From positions 62,001-126,000 of the forward strand of contig NZ_JAJOZT010000001.1 of NCBI RefSeq assembly GCF_021168475.1: DNA of 64,000 bases, given 5' to 3'. This document shows positions 50,559 to 57,904 of this stretch, piece by piece; the stretch's first letter is position 1, and every line of letters begins with the position of its first letter. The DNA is from Pseudoclavibacter sp. 13-3 (GTDB taxonomy: Bacteria; Actinomycetota; Actinomycetes; Actinomycetales; Microbacteriaceae). The notes below the pieces were generated by a model. It did no database searches, had not been told where the DNA came from, and saw only the letters and a list, made by a program, of their open reading frames with translations. The position numbers were made by a program, and so were the translations under genes.

Positions 50559-51158
50559 TCAGCGGTAGAGGATGTTGCCGATGGTGCGTGCGGTGCCGAA
50601 GTCGACGGCCACGGCTGTGGCTGTACCTGTGGAGTCTCGGCCGACGAACAGCGGGTACACGCCGTCACCATATCCAGCGGTGAGGCTGACGACATGGCCG
50701 TGCGGCGTGGTCGTCACGAGCGTGCCGAAGTCATCCGTGGTCGAAGAATCGATCACGGCCTCCACCAGGTCGGTATCGGCCTGCAGCGCACGAACCGCGG
50801 CTACAGTGCCGAACCCGATCACGCCAGCATCCACTGATACACCAACCGGCACCTTCTCACTGGTCAACGCGTCTTCCCAGACCAACTCGTCGATGGTGGC
50901 GTTCTCATGCACGGCCACGGCCACGGCTGGCACGCTGCCGCCGACCACGTGCACGACATAGTCGCCCGCAGCGAGATCTGCCTCGACCTCGGGCGCATGC
51001 ACATCTGCAAGCACGTCACAGACACACAGCCCCTGCCCGGCAGGCACAGCGAACCGGCCCGCGACCATGCGAGTGCCGTGCCCGGCAGCCAGCCGGCCGT
51101 CACCGGCGAACCCCTCACCGAGCACACGTGTCACCACAGCAGCAGGGCTTCTCACCAT
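50559..51158 (-). CDS. DUF4241 domain protein (immunity-type)
   Basis: 199 aa. The C-terminal half carries VSLTAGYGDGVYPLFVGRDSTG and ATAVAVDFG, the DUF4241 signature. DUF4241 proteins often sit beside toxin and immunity genes. No signal or membrane segment is visible. The start (ATG at 51158, or GTG at 51155) overlaps the Tdi1-like stop at 51152, so the two are translated together. The cognate toxin is not present in the window. Confidence 0.7.
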   Translation of the reverse strand: MVRSPAAVVTRVLGEGFAGDGRLAAGHGTRMVAGRFAVPAGQGLCVCDVLADVHAPEVEADLAAGDYVVHVVGGSVPAVAVAVHENATIDELVWEDALTSEKVPVGVSVDAGVIGFGTVAAVRALQADTDLVEAVIDSSTTDDFGTLVTTTPHGHVVSLTAGYGDGVYPLFVGRDSTGTATAVAVDFGTARTIGNILYR

Positions 51159-51742
51159 TTCGCAGGCCCCGCGAACTGGGCGATGATCAGCAGATGCGTG
51201 CGCATATCGAGGCGCTCCAGATGCGAGACGTCTTCAGGCCCGCCGGCCGCGAGAATCGGCACATACCCGAAGCACTCGTCAACCCCCGGAACACCCAACC
51301 GCTCCGCCGCCTCAGGAAACGGCGACCACCCCAACTGCTCTTCCGAAACTGCCCAAGAAGGCTCGTCACGAAGTCCCTTTGTAAAGTAGTCAACATCCTT
51401 AGCGGTCAGGGTGCGGATCTCACCATGCCTGTAGTCAATGACCAACAGATGCCCGCGCCCATCGGCCTCGAGTTGCCAGGCGAGGACGTCGCCCATGCCA
51501 GTGGTTGCGACAGGGATCACATCTCCCAGGGTCTGCGCGGTCTGGGCGACCAGCTCGCCCCACCCGTCCAACGGGTCGATCAGTCGCAGAAACCCGTCAA
51601 AGGCGACACCTTGCCCATAGCCTTCCCACCACTGCAACACACCGGGCGGCAGCACCTTGCGAAATCGACGCCTGGCCTTCTTCGACACCGCCACCCCTGA
51701 CGGCACGAACCCTGGCAACACGTACTGAGCATCTACAGGCAA
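51152..51742 (-). CDS. Tdi1/GAD-like immunity-type protein
   Basis: 196 aa from a TTG at 51742; the start is uncertain and GTG codons about 40-60 bp inside are alternatives. The region LPPGVLQWWEGYGQGVAFDG followed by FLRLIDP, VIPVATTGMGDVLAWQ and VIDYRHGEIRTL matches GAD-like and Tdi1 immunity domains, which neutralise toxins of secretion systems. The protein is soluble and cytosolic in appearance. Its partner toxin is missing here, as often occurs with immunity genes kept to resist neighbours. Coupled to DUF4241. Confidence 0.65.
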   Translation of the reverse strand: MPVDAQYVLPGFVPSGVAVSKKARRRFRKVLPPGVLQWWEGYGQGVAFDGFLRLIDPLDGWGELVAQTAQTLGDVIPVATTGMGDVLAWQLEADGRGHLLVIDYRHGEIRTLTAKDVDYFTKGLRDEPSWAVSEEQLGWSPFPEAAERLGVPGVDECFGYVPILAAGGPEDVSHLERLDMRTHLLIIAQFAGPAKW

Positions 51743-51884: not shown

Positions 51885-52436
51885 TCAGGAGTCGGCGGCG
51901 ATGCAATCTGCGGGTACGTAATCGGTGAGAATGACGCTATCGGACCCGTTCCTGAACTGCACGCCGTGGCCTGCCGCACGTGCAGTGTCGATGCGCAAGA
52001 GGACCGGTCGCTGGGCGTGGCGTCGTCCCACGATCATGGCCTGTTCTGCGCTGGTGGCCAAATGCACGAACTGGCGTCCCATCGGCTTCAGGCCTTCCCG
52101 AAGAATGTGCCCCCACGCCTCAGGCGACGTCGCGTGGAACAGCACCGGAGGTGGTGTCGAGACGACAACGTGATCGACGACCGTCGACAACGAATGCCCG
52201 TACGCGCCACGGATCCGATCCCCGCTGATCTCCAGACGAGTCTTCGTCTGATGGGCGACCAGTTCGCGCACCGTGGAATCTTCCACACCGGTGAAACCTA
52301 CTCGGCCGATAGCAGCGACCACGTCAGACAGCTTCGCCCACACCTAGTCGTCGAGCACGAGCCCGAACTCGCCGGGCACATGCCTCAGCGCCTGCGTCAG
52401 CAGCTGAGACAGGCGCAGCCGGTTCACCCCGCTCAT
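51885..52436 (-). pseudogene. kptA: RNA 2'-phosphotransferase (KptA/Tpt1), broken by one in-frame TAG
   Basis: The conserved body reads IRGAYGHSLSTVV, PPPVLFHATSPEAWGHIL, LKPMGRQFVHLATSAEQA and VLLRIDTARAAGHGVQF, matching KptA, which removes 2'-phosphate from RNA using NAD. In the same frame upstream, from an ATG at 52436, is the family's N-terminal lobe (LRHVPGEFGLVLDD), but codon 31 is TAG (52346-52344). Aligned with other KptA proteins it stands where LDxEGW has a Glu, so one G-to-T change explains it. The residual open frame (GTG at 52343, 152 aa) lacks the conserved catalytic Arg in LRH (Arg18). Other genes here use TAG as a true stop, so read-through is not expected. The ATG overlaps the upstream immunity fragment stop (ATGA). 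Confidence 0.85.
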
Positions 52437-52735
52437 GACCGCCTCCACCACCTGCGGCGGCGCGGCGGCGCCTTCCACGCCTCGTCGTACAACGGGACAT
52501 CCCACTCCAGATACCGGTCATCATCCGCGACGAACAACGCATGCAACTGCTCCGCACGCTCCAACCACGCCGCATAATTCGGCCAATGCCCCCGATACTC
52601 CCACCCCGGATCACAAAACGTATGAATCACCAACACCGCCGGATCGCCCGACAAATCAGCACCATCAAAACAAAACACATCATCAGTACCATTCATGACC
52701 GCAAATGGAACCAACGCACGGTACGGAAACGGGTG
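52433..52735 (-). pseudogene. SMI1/KNR4-like immunity gene, 3' fragment cut by the IS
   Basis: About 100 C-terminal residues remain (FPYRALVPFAVMNGTDDVFCF, then DPAVLVIHTFCDPGWEYRG and RYLEWDVPLYDEAW). The pattern V.PFA.....D.FCFD.......VVI is typical of SMI1/KNR4 immunity proteins. The 5' part is missing where the IS3-family element begins at 52736, so this is an insertion remnant. Its stop overlaps the kptA start. Confidence 0.65.
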
Positions 52736-52798
52736 TGCTGTGGGTTTGGTTGACTCCAAGGTTGTGTGTCTTTCGGGGCATACGGAAGGATGTTGATC

Positions 52799-53089
52799 AT
52801 GCCGAAGAAGTACACGGACGAGTTCAAGAAGGACGCTGCCGGGCTGGTGGAGTCGGGGATGTCGCAGAAGCAGGTGTGTGCTGACCTGGGGGTCTCGAAG
52901 TCTGCCCTGCAATCCTGGGTCGCGAAGGCTCAGTACGCGACGCACGGGCTGCCGACGAGTGGGGACGCGGAGACGATGAGAGCGTCCGCGCAGGCGTTGA
53001 AACGCATTCGTGAGCTGGAGATGGAGAACGAGGTGCTGCGTCGCGCGGCGGCGTATCTGTCGCAGGCGAATCTCAAGTTCCCAAAATGA
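52799..53089 (+). CDS. IS3-family transposase OrfA
   Basis: 96 aa from the ATG at 52799. A helix-turn-helix of the IS3/IS911 OrfA type (KYTDEFKKDAAGLVESGMSQ, then DLGVSKSALQSWVAK) and a C-terminal leucine zipper-like coil (RIRELEMENEVLRRAAAYL). It binds the terminal repeats. It overlaps orfB by four bases (ATGA at 53086-53089). Confidence 0.93.
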   Translation: MPKKYTDEFKKDAAGLVESGMSQKQVCADLGVSKSALQSWVAKAQYATHGLPTSGDAETMRASAQALKRIRELEMENEVLRRAAAYLSQANLKFPK

Positions 53090-53970
53090 TCTACCCGCTC
53101 GTCCAGGAGCTGGCCGTGACCGGTACCCGCTTGCGGGTGCCGGTCACGGTGACGTGCCGGGTATTGAAGATCACGAAGCAGGGCTACTTCAAATGGCTGG
53201 CTGTAGGAGTGTCGCAGCGTGATTGGGACGATGCCCATCTGGCCAATCAAGCTTTCGATATGCACCAGGAGGACCCGGAGTACGGGTATCGGCAGATCGC
53301 CTGGGAGCTGGAGGCCACCGGTGCGACCAGCGCATCAGAGCGGCGGATCTGGCGGGTGTGCTCTGAGAACGGGATCCGGTCGGTCATCGTCGGTACCGGC
53401 AGGCGCACAGGCTCGTGGGGTCCGCCGACGGCCGAGGCCCAAGTCCGGCGAGACTTCACCGCTGACGGCCCGAACCAGTTGTGGTTGACCGACATCACCG
53501 AGCACTGGACGCGCGAAGGCAAGCTCTACCTCTGCACGCTCAAAGACGTGTTCTCCAACCGGATCGTGGGCTACTCCATCGACTCTAGAATGAAAGCCAG
53601 CCTCGCTGTCGCAGCACTCACCGACGCGATCAATCGGCGATCCCCCGCGCCCGGTCTGATCGTCCATAGCGATAGAGGCAGTCAATTTCGGGCACGGAAA
53701 TTTCGTCGCGTTCTCGACTCCAACGGGCTGGCGCAGTCGATGGGTGCGGTCGGGACCTGCGCGGACAACGCCGCCATGGAATCGTTCTTCAACCTCGTGC
53801 AGACCAACGTTCTCGACCGCAAGAAATGGGCCACCAGACAAGAGCTCCGCCTCGCGCTGGTCCGCTGGATCAACGGCACCTACAACAGACGACGCAGACA
53901 ACGAGCACTCGGAAAACTCACCCCACTCGAATACGAGATAACCTATCAACCCACTGCACAAGCAGCATAA
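53086..53970 (+). CDS. IS3-family transposase OrfB (integrase core)
   Basis: 294 aa. The DDE catalytic triad is intact: Asp in QLWLTDITEHW, Asp in LIVHSDRGSQF and Glu in NAAMESFFNLVQ. GYRQIAWELEATG matches the usual HTH_21 region. Because orfB starts by ATGA overlap rather than an obvious frameshift site, separate translation is possible. The element appears able to move. Confidence 0.94.
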   Translation: MIYPLVQELAVTGTRLRVPVTVTCRVLKITKQGYFKWLAVGVSQRDWDDAHLANQAFDMHQEDPEYGYRQIAWELEATGATSASERRIWRVCSENGIRSVIVGTGRRTGSWGPPTAEAQVRRDFTADGPNQLWLTDITEHWTREGKLYLCTLKDVFSNRIVGYSIDSRMKASLAVAALTDAINRRSPAPGLIVHSDRGSQFRARKFRRVLDSNGLAQSMGAVGTCADNAAMESFFNLVQTNVLDRKKWATRQELRLALVRWINGTYNRRRRQRALGKLTPLEYEITYQPTAQAA

Positions 53971-54001
53971 GGAAAACAGTCAACCAAAGCTGCAGCAGAC
54001 C

Positions 54002-54312
54002 CTTTCTCCCACCAAGAGTCCGCGGGGATCGCACTGTCGGTCGCGGCCTGCAGACGCCCGGCCGTGGTGTGTGCGTCTTCTTGGTACGACTGCTTGGCCG
54101 AGGCCACCAAACGCCTCGCCGCGTCCAGGCGGGATTGCGCGTCACCGACCTGGGTCGACGCCGACCCGACACGGCCTGCGGCGTCTTGCTGCTGCCGGTA
54201 CAGTGAGCGCACCACAGACCCCGACGGCACACTCAACCCCCGACGGCACCTGATCAGCCTGCGCCGCCACCGCAGCAGCCAGACCCTGATCAGCTGTCGA
54301 GACCGTGCTCAT
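54002..54312 (-). pseudogene. Fragment of a T7SS toxin gene, cut by the IS and frameshifted
   Basis: Reading from the ATG at 54312, which overlaps the stop of the membrane gene, the start is MSTVSTADQGLAAAVAAQAD, related to the intact toxin's QSTADQGLASAVAAQAD segment. A segment coding QQDAAGRVGSASTQVGDAQS is nearly identical in DNA to the intact gene (54003-54239). One extra G just before that repeat (after the VPSG codons) breaks the frame, and the other end is cut by the IS right end. Only 100 or so codons are left. It probably derives from the neighbouring toxin or a second allele. Confidence 0.8.
54003..54239 (-). repeat. Duplicated toxin segment, copy 1 (in the fragment)
   Basis: 237 bp, identical to 56333-56569 apart from one base (c at 54117 against g). 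Its left end meets the IS right end at 54001/54002. The other end falls just before the LSVPSG coding region of the intact gene. Confidence 0.95.
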
Positions 54313-54689
54313 CCCAGCGCACCACCCGCACGCAAGAACTCAACCCCCAAATACACCTGCCCCGCACTCAGCACGAGGACGAATGGGACGGCTAGTAGCA
54401 TGGCCAGCAGGAGGATAGGTAAGGGCCAATGGCGACCCCTATGTACATCCTTCTGCGCCCCCCGCCACAGCTGCCACAGCACGAATGGGGATATCAGCAG
54501 GACCAGCAGTGGGGCGCCTCCGCGGAAGTGGCGCATCCCGCCCGAAATGGTGGTTGTCAGTGGCACCTGTGTGGGCACGTAGATCACGACGGCAACGGAC
54601 ACCAGGAAGCAGATGAGCGTGACCCACCACACGATCCTCGGCCAGACGGGTTGGCGTTGGTCGGGTTGCTTCACTTCCTCCGCCATCAC
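54309..54689 (-). CDS. Three-helix membrane protein, candidate immunity to the 787-aa toxin
   Basis: 126 aa. Three strongly hydrophobic segments: WPRIVWWVTLICFLVSVAVV, APLLVLLISPFVLWQLW and PLPILLLAMLLAVPFVLVLS. The GTG start at 54689 overlaps the toxin stop (54686-54688), and its own stop overlaps the start of the toxin fragment, so both junctions are coupled. No known family is recognised. A small integral membrane protein translated directly behind a toxin is the usual layout for immunity to pore-forming toxins. This role is inferred from position and topology. Confidence 0.65.
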   Translation of the reverse strand: MMAEEVKQPDQRQPVWPRIVWWVTLICFLVSVAVVIYVPTQVPLTTTISGGMRHFRGGAPLLVLLISPFVLWQLWRGAQKDVHRGRHWPLPILLLAMLLAVPFVLVLSAGQVYLGVEFLRAGGALG

Positions 54690-57049
54690 TGGGGGTCTCC
54701 AGGAGCACCTTCTTCAGACGGTGGGGGTGGTGCAGGAGCGGGTTCAGGGTCCGGGCTGACATCCTTCTGGGCCACCTGGTCGATGACGTACTTGATCGCG
54801 TCGACACCGAGGCCCGCGTGCTCGCCTGCATAGGCCGCAGCCACGTGCGCACCAAAGGAAGGCACACCGGACGCGAGATCTTCAGCACCCGGGAACTTGG
54901 CCAAGGCCGCACCACCAAGCGCATCCAGAAGGCCTTGTTGCACCGTATACGGGTCGTCGGAATCGTCCAGACCAGCCTGCACCAGACCACCAGCGACTTC
55001 CGCAGCAGCAGGAACACCGTATTCCACAAAGTCCTTCACAAACTCAGACTTGTCTTGGAGTGGTTTGGCGAGGTGTCCGCCTTGTGCTCCGGCTGCTCCT
55101 GCGACGGCTCCGCCGGCGGCTGCGGCTGCGGCTCCTTGGACGGACCAGTCCTGCTGATCAGTCGTGGCGAGATAGACGCCGGTGTTGCCCACCGCGCCGA
55201 ACGCCCCATTCGAGACCGCTGACATGCCCATCTGCCCCCACTCCACTGACTGGCGGCTGCTCCCGCCATCACCAGGCACGCTACCACCAACACCACCCGA
55301 TCCACCGGGTTCATCACCGCCAGGCCCGTCTCCACCGCGTCTGCCCGTGCTGTCGCCAGGGCCACCGTCGCTCGTGCCGTCGCCGCTGGTGCTGCCGCTG
55401 TCGCCAGGGGTGTCGCCGTGCCCGTCGGTGTCACTGTGGGCCGACGTGTTCTCGGGCTTCTCGGAGCGTGCGGCAGGCGCATCCCCGGCGTGCGGTGTGT
55501 CCGGGGCCGCCGGAGCGTGTGCCGGGTCTGGTGTGCCCGCCTGTGGCGTGTCACCGCGGGGCATGTCGCCGTGAAGTGTGTCGCCGCGCGGCGAAGAATG
55601 GGTGCCGTCATGGCCTGCGGGCGAGCCTGCGTCAGAACCCCCGGACGCCGAATGCCTGCCAGCACCAGTGCTCGTGCCAGTGCCGGTGTCTGGGGTGGTG
55701 GCCTGTCTGGTGTGTGCTCCGTCGTGGAGGTCGCCGGTGATCCGTGATGTTGAGCGCTCGGCGTCGGCGCCGGCGTGTGCCAACGAGGGCCGCCCACTCG
55801 CGCGGGCCACCAGATCCGTGACGTTGTCGATCGCGCGCTTGCCCGAGGCGAGCACGCCCTGATAGATCGGGTCGCTGCGAACCGACCGTTTCGCACCATC
55901 CCACGCACGCTGCGACGCGGCAGACACCCGGTCACCCGCACGCTGGGCGGCACTCCACGCCTTCTTCGACCCGGACACAACAGCGTCTGCGGCGTGGGTC
56001 GCGACCTGCCCGACACGACCAGACGCGGAAGCCACCCTGCCCGCGCCACGAGCGATCGCCCCGACACCCTTTGCCAGGGCCTTGCCGCCCTTGGCGATCG
56101 CCCCGCCCGGGATGAAGTTCAGCCCCATCGCCAGCAGGAACTGCCCGGTCGACATGTTGCCCTTCGCGTACTCCGCGATATCGTCAGCCGTCAACAACGC
56201 CCCAGCACCGAACGCGATACCGGCAGCGATCCACCCCGCAGGCCCCGACAGGAACAGCCCCGCTACCGCAGCGACCACGACCACGACCGTCGCGACCGTG
56301 ACCAGCACTTTCCACGCATCCGAGTTGGTGAGTTTCTCCCACCAAGAGTCCGCGGGGATCGCACTGTCGGTCGCGGCCTGCAGACGCCCGGCCGTGGTGT
56401 GTGCGTCTTCTTGGTACGACTGCTTGGCCGAGGCCACCAAACGCCTGGCCGCGTCCAGGCGGGATTGCGCGTCACCGACCTGGGTCGACGCCGACCCGAC
56501 ACGGCCTGCGGCGTCTTGCTGCTGCCGGTACAGTGAGCGCACCACAGACCCCGACGGCACACTCAACCCAGCAGGCACCTGACCGGCGGGTGCAGATCCC
56601 CACTGCTGGAATACCCTGTTCTGCTGCGAGTACTCGGCCTGCGCAGACTGCTGAGCAGACTGCGCGGAGGCCAGCGAGGCCTGCGCCGAGGCGAGATCAG
56701 CCTGCGCCGCAACAGCGGAAGCCAGACCTTGGTCGGCCGTTGACTGGTGAGACTCCATCACTGACGCCCACCAGTTCAACGCGTCACGGGCCTGTGAGAA
56801 CGAATCCCGCACCCGCCAAACCTGATCCGGGAAATCCCCGAGCTTGTCACGAAACACATCACCGGCCTGACCAACCCACACGCCAGAACCCGAAGCCGAG
56901 CGTACCTGCTCGAGCGTGGCCTGCACATCAGCGGCCACTGACGCTACCCGATCCCACCGCGACGCCAACCCCCGCACACCAAACGCATCACCCGGGGTCG
57001 GGTCCCCCGACTGGTCAGCCGGCGACCAATCACTGAACCTGCCCATCAC
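54686..57049 (-). CDS. T7SS-type polymorphic toxin with glycine-zipper-like C-terminus
   Basis: 787 aa from a GTG at 57049 (ATG at 57046 alternative). Residues 1-110 resemble a WXG100-like helical hairpin (VWVGQAGDVFRDKLGDFPDQ). A coiled-coil stretch follows (LASAQASLASAQSAQQSAQ, about 115-150), then a membrane-like segment (about 250-290, VLVTVATVVVVVAAVAGLFL). Residues 430-600 are a low-complexity linker rich in Gly, Asp, His and Thr. The C-terminal module (600-787) has Gly/Ala-rich VQGAAAAAAGGAVAGAAGAQ, a glycine-zipper-like pattern. No nuclease or ADP-ribosyltransferase motif is visible, so membrane disruption is a reasonable guess. It ends in a Pro/Glu-rich tail and overlaps the membrane gene. 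Confidence 0.8.
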   Translation of the reverse strand: MMGRFSDWSPADQSGDPTPGDAFGVRGLASRWDRVASVAADVQATLEQVRSASGSGVWVGQAGDVFRDKLGDFPDQVWRVRDSFSQARDALNWWASVMESHQSTADQGLASAVAAQADLASAQASLASAQSAQQSAQAEYSQQNRVFQQWGSAPAGQVPAGLSVPSGSVVRSLYRQQQDAAGRVGSASTQVGDAQSRLDAARRLVASAKQSYQEDAHTTAGRLQAATDSAIPADSWWEKLTNSDAWKVLVTVATVVVVVAAVAGLFLSGPAGWIAAGIAFGAGALLTADDIAEYAKGNMSTGQFLLAMGLNFIPGGAIAKGGKALAKGVGAIARGAGRVASASGRVGQVATHAADAVVSGSKKAWSAAQRAGDRVSAASQRAWDGAKRSVRSDPIYQGVLASGKRAIDNVTDLVARASGRPSLAHAGADAERSTSRITGDLHDGAHTRQATTPDTGTGTSTGAGRHSASGGSDAGSPAGHDGTHSSPRGDTLHGDMPRGDTPQAGTPDPAHAPAAPDTPHAGDAPAARSEKPENTSAHSDTDGHGDTPGDSGSTSGDGTSDGGPGDSTGRRGGDGPGGDEPGGSGGVGGSVPGDGGSSRQSVEWGQMGMSAVSNGAFGAVGNTGVYLATTDQQDWSVQGAAAAAAGGAVAGAAGAQGGHLAKPLQDKSEFVKDFVEYGVPAAAEVAGGLVQAGLDDSDDPYTVQQGLLDALGGAALAKFPGAEDLASGVPSFGAHVAAAYAGEHAGLGVDAIKYVIDQVAQKDVSPDPEPAPAPPPPSEEGAPGDPQ
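56333..56569 (-). repeat. Duplicated toxin segment, copy 2 (in the intact toxin gene)
   Basis: 237 bp, matching 54003-54239 apart from one base (g at 56447). It lies inside the coding region for the QQDAAGRV...SWWEK part of the toxin, between the coiled coil and the membrane-like segment. Confidence 0.95.
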
Positions 57050-57342
57050 ATGCCCCCGCCGCTGGTCTGCGTGGTCAGTGAGGCTGCGATCTGCTGGTCG
57101 GTGTCTTGGTATGACGTGGCCGAGTCGGAGAGCATGCCAGACAGAGAGTCGATGTTCGTGTCGATCTTCTCGGTGACTTCACCCCAGTGGGAATCGAACT
57201 CACCAGCTGCTGCACCGACCTGCCCGTCACCGAGGGCGCCGTGGTCTATGCCGCCGCCGAAACCGTGCAGTCGATTCGACGTGCCACGCATCTGCCCGGC
57301 CAGGCCTGTCAGCGCACTGATGTCTACCTGAAGATCAGGCAT
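57046..57342 (-). CDS. WXG100-family secreted protein
   Basis: 98 aa with a GGGGGAGA ribosome binding site. Two helices with FDSHWGEV in the turn, and a C-terminal YQDTD that fits the YxxxD secretion signal. It likely forms the helical export partner of the toxin or of the other WXG100 protein. Its stop overlaps the toxin start. No signal peptide, as expected for type VII substrates. Confidence 0.85.
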   Translation of the reverse strand: MPDLQVDISALTGLAGQMRGTSNRLHGFGGGIDHGALGDGQVGAAAGEFDSHWGEVTEKIDTNIDSLSGMLSDSATSYQDTDQQIAASLTTQTSGGGM

Positions 57343-57476: not shown

Positions 57477-57773
57477 TCAGTTGCCGAGTGATGAGGCCAG
57501 CGAAGAATCAGTCTGCTGGAACTGGTCAGCAGCGCGGGTGAGGAACTGGGAAAGCCCGTCGAGGCCGTGCAGCACATTTCTTGTTCCGGTGTCGAATTCG
57601 GTGTATGAAGCACCGAACGCCCCTGAGGCGGTGTCAGTGACGAACCCTTCTTCGATGAGGTTGTCAACCAGGTTCTTCAGCTGTGTGAGCTGGTCTTCGA
57701 GCTGGCCCTTGCCTGTGGTGAGCTGGCTTGCGACAGTGCTGAGCTCGTCATAGGTGACCTTGACATTTGCCAT
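57477..57773 (-). CDS. WXG100-family secreted protein (second copy)
   Basis: 98 aa from the ATG at 57773 (GGAGGGG site). Helical hairpin with VKVTYDELSTVASQLTTGKG, then GAFGASYTEFDTG in the turn where a W-x-G would be, and C-terminal FQQTD close to the YxxxD secretion signal. The Trp of WXG is replaced, but length and pattern fit the family. 134 bp from the next WXG100 gene. Divergent from the FtsK-type ATPase. Confidence 0.85.
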   Translation of the reverse strand: MANVKVTYDELSTVASQLTTGKGQLEDQLTQLKNLVDNLIEEGFVTDTASGAFGASYTEFDTGTRNVLHGLDGLSQFLTRAADQFQQTDSSLASSLGN

Positions 57774-57795
57774 GGGGATTCCCCTCCAGTGTTCT

Positions 57796-57904
57796 CCCGT
57801 GCACCGATCTGGGCACACGGGAACCTTATCGCCGCGTGGCCTTCCCGCACAACTGAGTATTCGCAACGTTACGTATTGTTCACCGAAGCACCAGTAGTCT
57901 GGTG
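57796..57904. promoter_or_regulatory. Divergent promoter region with inverted repeats between WXG100 and the T7SS ATPase
   Basis: The 164-bp gap between the WXG100 gene and the ATPase start contains CCCGTG...CACGGG (57796-57801 with 57816-57821) and CACCAG-tagt-CTGGTG (57889-57904), the second immediately before the ATPase start. They could be operators for both sides or a hairpin at the 5' end of the ATPase mRNA. No regulator is known. Confidence 0.4.

What the first reader, a model, noticed from the sequence alone, without database searches (positions are those of the whole stretch)
52344..52346. KptA gene inactivated by a single in-frame TAG
Seen: the frame runs from ATG 52436 with an intact N-terminal lobe (LRHVPGEFGLVLDD), TAG at codon 31, then the rest of KptA. 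TAG sits where the family has Glu in LDxEGW, so one base change explains it. lpdA, fabH, acpP and the LuxR-type gene in this window end in TAG, so the codon is not reassigned. A truncated product from the following GTG would lack the catalytic Arg. KptA belongs to the ADP-ribosyltransferase superfamily and lies among immunity genes, so its loss may reflect a conflict.
Basis: partly seen in the sequence, partly recalled or inferred. Interest (0 to 1): 0.6.

Follow-up and report, generated by a model that had tools for sequence, protein, structure and literature searches.

The report
Decayed KptA in a toxin cassette
A soil bacterium carries a dead copy of an RNA-repair gene (kptA) that, in relatives and in some unrelated bacteria, sits as a third gene beside a bacterial warfare toxin and its antidote, which gives a testable idea of what this puzzling bacterial enzyme may be for.

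Summary
The in-frame TAG is real. The intact Pseudoclavibacter soli copy has Gln there, not Glu. The window allele also carries changes at two positions invariant in 75 of 75 other KptA rows (codons 32, 77), so this is a decaying pseudogene, not a one-base slip. The upstream overlapping SUKH immunity gene has lost its start to an IS3-type element.

The wider result: in P. soli and two other actinobacterial genera KptA ends a [ParB-like domain]-[SUKH]-[KptA] cassette. A second cassette, [toxin domain with NTR motif]-[immunity]-[KptA], occurs in Actinomycetota, Pseudomonadota and unverified Listeria contigs (Bacillota). Starting from that toxin domain alone, KptA lies within 1 kb in 4 of 5 independent loci. 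The link is not universal: 5 of 8 ParB-like/SUKH loci lack KptA.

Best reading: KptA is an accessory immunity (RNA-repair) gene that removes RNA 2'-phosphates caused by the toxin. When the toxin side was lost, KptA lost its use and decayed. Pseudogene about 0.9; cassette link about 0.85; repair role about 0.5; toxin as a 2'-kinase about 0.2. In print I found only RHS-KptA adjacency in Listeria.

The parts
51885..52436 (-). kptA pseudogene (RNA 2'-phosphotransferase, Tpt1/KptA family), Y-type lineage
   Evidence: PF01885; trees
52344..52346 (-). in-frame TAG, codon 31
52206..52208 (-). codon 77, Gly where 75 of 75 other rows have Ala
52074..52346 (-). mosaic patch: holds all 19 differences between this kptA and the P. 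soli copy
52433..52729 (-). 3' part of a SUKH-1-like (SMI1/KNR4) immunity gene whose stop overlaps the kptA start; 5' part missing
   Evidence: 98 of 164 residues of the P. soli protein, 100% identical; PF09346 below cut-off
52732..54001 (+). IS3-type element (orfA 52766-53089, orfB 53086-53970), terminal inverted repeats 20 of 24, no target duplication seen by eye
   Evidence: (rve on orfB)
54003..54253 (-). duplicated fragment of the T7SS-type toxin gene (98% identical to 56333-56582), remnant of an orphan toxin cassette
54686..57049 (-). large gene read as a T7SS-type polymorphic toxin (787 aa; T7SS_signal match below cut-off)
57046..57342 (-). WXG100-like gene
   Evidence: below cut-off
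57477..57866 (-). WXG100 gene
   Evidence: above cut-off
51152..51742 (-). Tdi1/GAD-like immunity gene
   Evidence: Tdi1_C above cut-off
50559..51158 (-). DUF4241 gene, array neighbour
   Evidence: above cut-off

Best explanation
The TAG marks a decaying pseudogene of kptA that once was the last gene of a polymorphic-toxin cassette: a ParB-like toxin domain, its SUKH immunity protein and KptA. Shown: the stop, the further changes at invariant positions, the truncated SUKH gene, the IS3-type element, and the intact cassette in P. soli and two other genera. Shown for a second toxin-domain type: toxin domain, immunity gene and KptA side by side in three phyla (KptA on the opposite strand in the proteobacterial cases). 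Inferred: KptA protects or repairs the producer by taking 2'-phosphates off RNA with NAD+, after the toxin has either phosphorylated RNA 2'-OH groups or cut RNA in a way that leaves 2'-phosphates; the immunity protein blocks the toxin and KptA cleans up what leaks through. Inferred for the window: an IS-linked rearrangement removed the toxin domain and the start of the SUKH gene, selection on kptA stopped, and it gained a nonsense codon and missense changes.
For: Pseudogene. Type 1 cassette: ParB-like, SUKH, KptA in that order in P. soli (L027) and G447; in G012 the ParB-like/SUKH pair is doubled and then KptA follows. In 51 KptA neighbourhoods scanned with the cassette profiles, 9 of 22 Y-lineage loci and 0 of 29 others have a hit within 6 kb (the profiles were built mainly from those Y loci). 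Of 299 same-family genomes only G002 and G012 hold this ParB-like domain, both next to KptA (same caveat, and at most 13 candidates per genome were scored). Type 2: toxin domain - partner A - KptA in G1153, G521 and two identical contigs labelled Listeria phage (partner A profile E 6.9e-15 in the latter); toxin domain - immunity - KptA in Burkholderia ambifaria, B. multivorans, Duffyella. Toxin-first tblastn in plasmids and phages: KptA within 1 kb in 5 of 7 records, 4 of 5 independent loci, while 57 of 72,556 plasmid records match P. soli KptA. In a tree with these sequences the Y and Q lineages split with 100/100 support; the Listeria KptA falls in the Y lineage, the proteobacterial ones in the Q lineage, so KptA joined such cassettes at least twice. 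The catalytic Arg, His, Arg, Arg positions are invariant in 75 of 75 rows. KptA erases a tRNA 2'-phosphate written by a kinase (PMC9095486, abstract and passages).
Against: KptA is not obligate: 5 of 8 full-length type-1 domain-plus-SUKH loci have none in the stretch scanned (G868, G900, G828, G801, Streptococcus); the Mesorhizobium type-2 loci lack it. 12 of 22 Y-lineage loci show no toxin or immunity gene by my method, three Curtobacterium megaplasmids among them. Of 14 plasmid KptA records picked without knowing their neighbours, 1 (Rahnella) lies in a polymorphic-toxin array (one unannotated). A QGHS-type KptA (G585) also has a SUKH gene nearby. That the window itself once held the ParB-like gene is not shown: its toxin fragment ends at another point than that of P. 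soli. Homology of the two toxin types is weak (hhalign 1-2%; 31-81% only with a bridging sequence put into one profile). No PDB match for type 1; the structure model failed (pLDDT 38). The Listeria records are marked unverified. No activity was tested.
Confidence: 0.55

Rival explanations
1. Plain decay: a horizontally acquired, dispensable kptA that happened to lie in a mobile, IS-ridden region was lost by drift, with no functional tie to the toxins.
For: KptA is patchy (12 of 299 genomes of the family) and E. coli kptA is dispensable (PMC6333775 passages); 12 of 22 Y-lineage loci show no toxin or immunity neighbour by my method.
Against: Toxin, immunity and KptA genes recur together in three phyla with two KptA lineages, and toxin-first searches find KptA in 4 of 5 loci.
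Confidence: 0.25
2. KptA in these cassettes is itself a toxin or an effector-side enzyme (an ADP-ribosyltransferase), as suggested for Listeria ST121; losing it would cost attack, not defence.
For: ART fold; PMC4412001 (passage) suggests a toxin-like role next to RHS; PMC11833690 (passages) speaks of Tpt1/KptA-like toxins.
Against: A separate gene after toxin and immunity genes, on the other strand in B. ambifaria, B. multivorans, Duffyella and Rahnella; no secretion part recognised on it; residues of the RNA 2'-phosphotransferase active site kept.
Confidence: 0.12
3. The TAG is a sequencing or assembly error and the gene is intact.
For: No reads and no second strain could be seen.
Against: 18 further kptA differences from P. 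soli, two of them at otherwise invariant positions, and a truncated coupled upstream gene.
Confidence: 0.04
4. The locus still makes a useful product by read-through of TAG, or by restart at the GTG next to it.
For: GTG directly follows TAG; 10 synonymous against 9 non-synonymous differences in the patch (pN/pS about 0.33).
Against: The patch is a mosaic, so that ratio mostly reflects older selection. A restarted protein lacks the invariant LRH Arg-His; TAG is a normal stop here; no Shine-Dalgarno-like run is seen directly before the GTG (by eye); Gly32 and Ala77 are also changed.
Confidence: 0.04

Closest known systems
KptA/Tpt1 RNA 2'-phosphotransferase (PF01885)
   Same: Family match, both lobes and the Arg-His-Arg-Arg tetrad in the intact P. 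soli copy; its PDB matches are all KptA/Tpt1 chains (12 sequences).
   Different: The window copy is broken; its lineage (YGHS in 21 of 22 members, QGHS in most others) is partly tied to toxin loci.
Tox-ParBL1 polymorphic toxin with Imm-SUKH (Zhang et al. 2012, PMC3482391)
   Same: P. soli, G447 and G012 pair a ParB-like domain with a SUKH protein; the paper gives SUKH as a ParBL1 partner, and Neisseria gonorrhoeae, whose protein typifies ParBL1, is hit.
   Different: A third gene, KptA; the held part of that paper has no word beginning 'Kpt'. ParB fold not confirmed here.
RHS-KptA insert of Listeria monocytogenes ST121 (PMC4412001, PMC5417603)
   Same: RHS protein with kptA next to it; two Listeria-labelled contigs here show toxin domain - partner A relative - KptA. 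Whether they are the same insert was not tested.
   Different: Those papers (passages) treat KptA as a possible toxin-like partner; the passages do not describe a cassette shared across phyla.
ArkI/KptA reversible tRNA 2'-phosphorylation (PMC9095486)
   Same: KptA as eraser of an internal RNA 2'-phosphate.
   Different: There the writer is a cellular RNA kinase; here a secreted toxin is proposed as the source, untested.

Membership tests
Functional KptA/Tpt1 (window copy) | PF01885 match over its length | tested here: met
   106.5 bits, positions 3-176 of 177, across the stop
Functional KptA/Tpt1 (window copy) | one open reading frame holding both lobes and the Arg-His-Arg-Arg tetrad | tested here: not met
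   TAG at codon 31 parts Arg18-His19 from the other two
Functional KptA/Tpt1 (P. soli copy) | intact frame and tetrad | tested here: met
[quoted passage not shown]
   needs an enzyme assay
Polymorphic-toxin immunity array | large secreted toxin gene with exchangeable ends and diverse immunity genes | tested here: met
   duplicated toxin-gene fragment and a toxin end that lies in an orphan cassette of P. soli; Tdi1_C, DUF4241 and one WXG100 above Pfam cut-offs, T7SS_signal and SUKH below them
Tox-ParBL1 (the P. soli neighbour, not in the window) | [ST] and [NT][RT][RT] motifs, SUKH partner | tested here: met
   by eye against the table in PMC3482391: P. soli has RFSQ and NTR; G447 (NSR) and G012 (NAR) fit less exactly; the 13-row consensus has N-r-R
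Tox-ParBL1 (the P. soli neighbour, not in the window) | ParB fold | tested here: inconclusive
   no PDB sequence match, no Pfam ParB match, failed model
Stop-codon reassignment or read-through | TAG read as an amino acid in this genome | tested here: not met
   5 of 28 long ORFs end in TAG; the one tRNA in the window is Val; tRNAs of the whole genome were not scanned

The most novel reading that the evidence does not exclude
A polymorphic toxin class with a ParB/sulfiredoxin-like domain poisons rivals by phosphorylating RNA 2'-OH groups, and KptA is the enzymatic antidote that erases the mark with NAD+. This would be a writer-eraser toxin-immunity system carried in three phyla, and an answer to why bacteria without tRNA splicing keep KptA.
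Probability: 0.2. Interest if true: 0.9.

Novelty: new variant of a known kind. Interest (0 to 1): 0.6.

Why it matters
Why bacteria keep KptA, with no known source of RNA 2'-phosphate in E. coli, is called a longstanding conundrum in the structural literature (PMC6333775, passages). A recurrent toxin-immunity-KptA cassette names a concrete candidate source of that phosphate and makes the question testable with three small genes. It also shows how one nonsense codon in a draft genome can point to a partner that was lost beside it.

Tried and rejected
A housekeeping-kptA reading was dropped after the trees and neighbour survey. A Dcm-type origin of the stop (the P. soli site reads CCAGG) was not pursued: the genome holds one C5 methylase of unknown specificity. 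The Curtobacterium plasmid KptAs, nearest in the plasmid search, have hypothetical and GIY-YIG genes around them (the third record is unannotated), and none of the cassette profiles hits there. Viral contigs gave no ParB-like relative. Partner A of G1153 has no match in plasmids. A beta-lactamase resemblance of the second toxin type is far below cut-offs and was taken as chance. SUKH or immunity relatives in Pantoea dispersa, Streptococcus and a second Duffyella plasmid have no KptA in the stretches scanned. The single-sequence structure was too poor to search with. My hand ORF caller missed the G521 cassette; a six-frame profile scan found it. The 51 loci are a chosen set (the Y-lineage members known to me plus controls), not a random sample.

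Full report
WHAT IS THERE. On the - strand, the frame from ATG 52436 runs 30 codons to TAG at 52346-52344 and then on to TGA at 51887-51885. PF01885 (Tpt1/KptA) matches across the stop and the downstream part alone matches strongly. It is the genome's only match to this family. Two further same-genus genomes have no kptA match. That the family is Microbacteriaceae is recalled.

COMPARISON WITH THE INTACT COPY. P. soli kptA is intact. Over 849 aligned bases there are 23 differences, 19 of them in kptA, all between codons 31 and 121, none in codons 1-30 or 122-183. So short a span arose in 2 of 200,000 random placements, so the allele is a mosaic, probably from recombination. The patch holds 10 synonymous and 9 non-synonymous differences, the stop included (pN/pS 0.33), so most of its divergence arose under constraint; the damaging changes look recent. 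Codon 31 is Gln in P. soli. In 75 other rows codon 32 is always Gly and codon 77 always Ala; the window has Val and Gly.

THE LOCUS. kptA overlaps by four bases the end of a SUKH-1-like gene, of which the window keeps 98 of 164 codons, identical in protein to P. soli. The missing part is replaced by an IS3-type element, 52732-54001, with terminal repeats matching at 20 of 24 positions and no target duplication seen by eye. Beyond it lies a 250-base fragment of the large toxin gene, 98% identical to part of the full gene at 54686-57049, and WXG100-type genes. Downstream of kptA are Tdi1/GAD and DUF4241 genes. I read this as a T7SS-type polymorphic-toxin locus with orphan cassettes; the T7SS signal match itself is below its cut-off. 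The end of the window's toxin gene corresponds to an orphan cassette in P. soli.

A KPTA LINEAGE PARTLY IN TOXIN LOCI. A tree of 79 KptA sequences places the Pseudoclavibacter gene in a 22-member lineage (support 93/86). A second tree of 48 rows, chosen to include cassette KptAs from other phyla and leaving out the most divergent branches, splits this Y lineage from the Q lineage with 100/100 support. YGHS stands in 21 of 22 members; it also occurs in some divergent rows outside. In an all-against-all comparison of neighbours in 51 loci (22 of the lineage, 29 others), the families found only beside this lineage include a ParB-like domain, an uncharacterised 'partner A', RHS-type toxins and array genes, besides families explained by close kinship of the genomes. 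Six-frame scans with the four cassette profiles (two toxin-domain types, SUKH, partner A) hit 9 of 22 lineage loci and 0 of 29 others within 6 kb; the profiles were built mainly from those loci. A tenth, G1152, shares only a DUF4265-like gene with the G061 array and is a weaker case. The remaining 12 show none by this method, though not all were inspected gene by gene.

CASSETTE TYPE 1. P. soli and G447 have ParB-like domain, SUKH, KptA in that order; G012 has the pair twice and then KptA. The motifs fit Tox-ParBL1, one of whose known partners is SUKH (PMC3482391; passages and one section read; motif fit by eye). Of 299 genomes of the family, 2 hold the domain and both have it by KptA, but the profile came from them. 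In a class-wide sample 11 of 296 genomes match (at most 13 candidates per genome scored); none of these loci has KptA in the stretch scanned (G815 only). Of 8 full-length domain-plus-SUKH loci, 3 have KptA.

CASSETTE TYPE 2. In G1153 an RHS-type toxin ends in a different domain with an NTR motif, overlapping partner A, followed by KptA. A six-frame scan showed the same order in G521. Searching with the toxin domain alone gave 5 plasmid records and 2 identical contigs labelled Listeria phage and marked unverified. KptA lies within 1 kb in B. ambifaria, B. multivorans, Duffyella and both Listeria contigs, not in the two plasmids of one Mesorhizobium strain: 5 of 7 records, 4 of 5 independent loci. 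The first query was itself taken from a KptA-linked cassette. In the Listeria contigs the order is toxin domain, partner A relative, KptA, on one strand; in the three proteobacterial loci KptA is on the other strand. 57 of 72,556 plasmid records match P. soli KptA. The Listeria KptA falls within the Y lineage, the proteobacterial ones within the Q lineage, so KptA joined such cassettes at least twice, and one cassette seems to have moved between phyla. In Rahnella, KptA abuts a SUKH-like gene inside a contact-dependent inhibition array; that SUKH sequence was put into my profile by eye. Of 14 KptA plasmid records picked without knowing their neighbours it is the only one in such an array; one of the 14 has no annotation.

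LINK BETWEEN THE TYPES. Profile comparison gives 1-2%. One sequence (G882) hits both profiles at one place, and adding it to one profile raises the score to 31-81%, which is partly circular. Common ancestry is plausible, not shown.

MECHANISM. Intact cassette KptAs keep the catalytic tetrad (actinobacterial rows), so they should be working 2'-phosphotransferases. KptA removes an internal 2'-phosphate from tRNA that a kinase wrote (PMC9095486, abstract and passages). PMC3482391 (section read) argues that the ParB superfamily does phosphotransfer and that some members may be nucleases. Either way RNA 2'-phosphate is a reasonable product, and KptA a reasonable repair enzyme. This is inference. 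In the window the toxin domain is absent and the SUKH gene broken, so KptA would have no task. The other KptA with an in-frame stop, G061, also sits in an array with partner A and without the toxin domain in the 15 kb fetched; two cases are too few for a test.

PRIOR WORK. Library searches listed no paper that, from titles, abstracts and the passages I opened, describes a ParB-like toxin, immunity and KptA cassette. Two Listeria ST121 papers note RHS with KptA adjacent (passages). Most listed papers were not opened, and the library is open-access only, so absence is not proof.

Noticed in passing
L009 / L017 (G061) kptA: A second kptA with an in-frame TAG, at a different codon, also inside an immunity array without the toxin domain in the stretch fetched.
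   Followed up: partly
window 54003-54253 and 56333-56582: 98% identical duplicated toxin-gene segment, a trace of toxin-end exchange.
   Followed up: partly
window 54111-55303 against L027 12087-13244: The end of the window's main toxin matches an orphan cassette in P. soli (79%), suggesting exchange of toxin ends within the genus.
   Followed up: no
L021, L022, L023 (G037, G239, G295); also G882 and G830: KptA domains near the C-terminal end of proteins of about 700-1,060 aa (open frames of over 1,000 aa in G882, G830) with an uncharacterised N-terminal part; a divergent KptA branch.
   Followed up: no
L174 (Duffyella plasmid, 184702-185301 of the record): A second KptA copy, 98% identical to the one beside the toxin, next to VENN pre-toxin and SMI1 genes.
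   Followed up: no
L178 (Acidovorax plasmid): KptA next to ADP-ribosylglycohydrolase and NUDIX genes, a possible separate NAD/ADP-ribose repair operon.
   Followed up: no
G802, G1056, G1076: KptA matches broken into two pieces, probably further pseudogenes.
   Followed up: no
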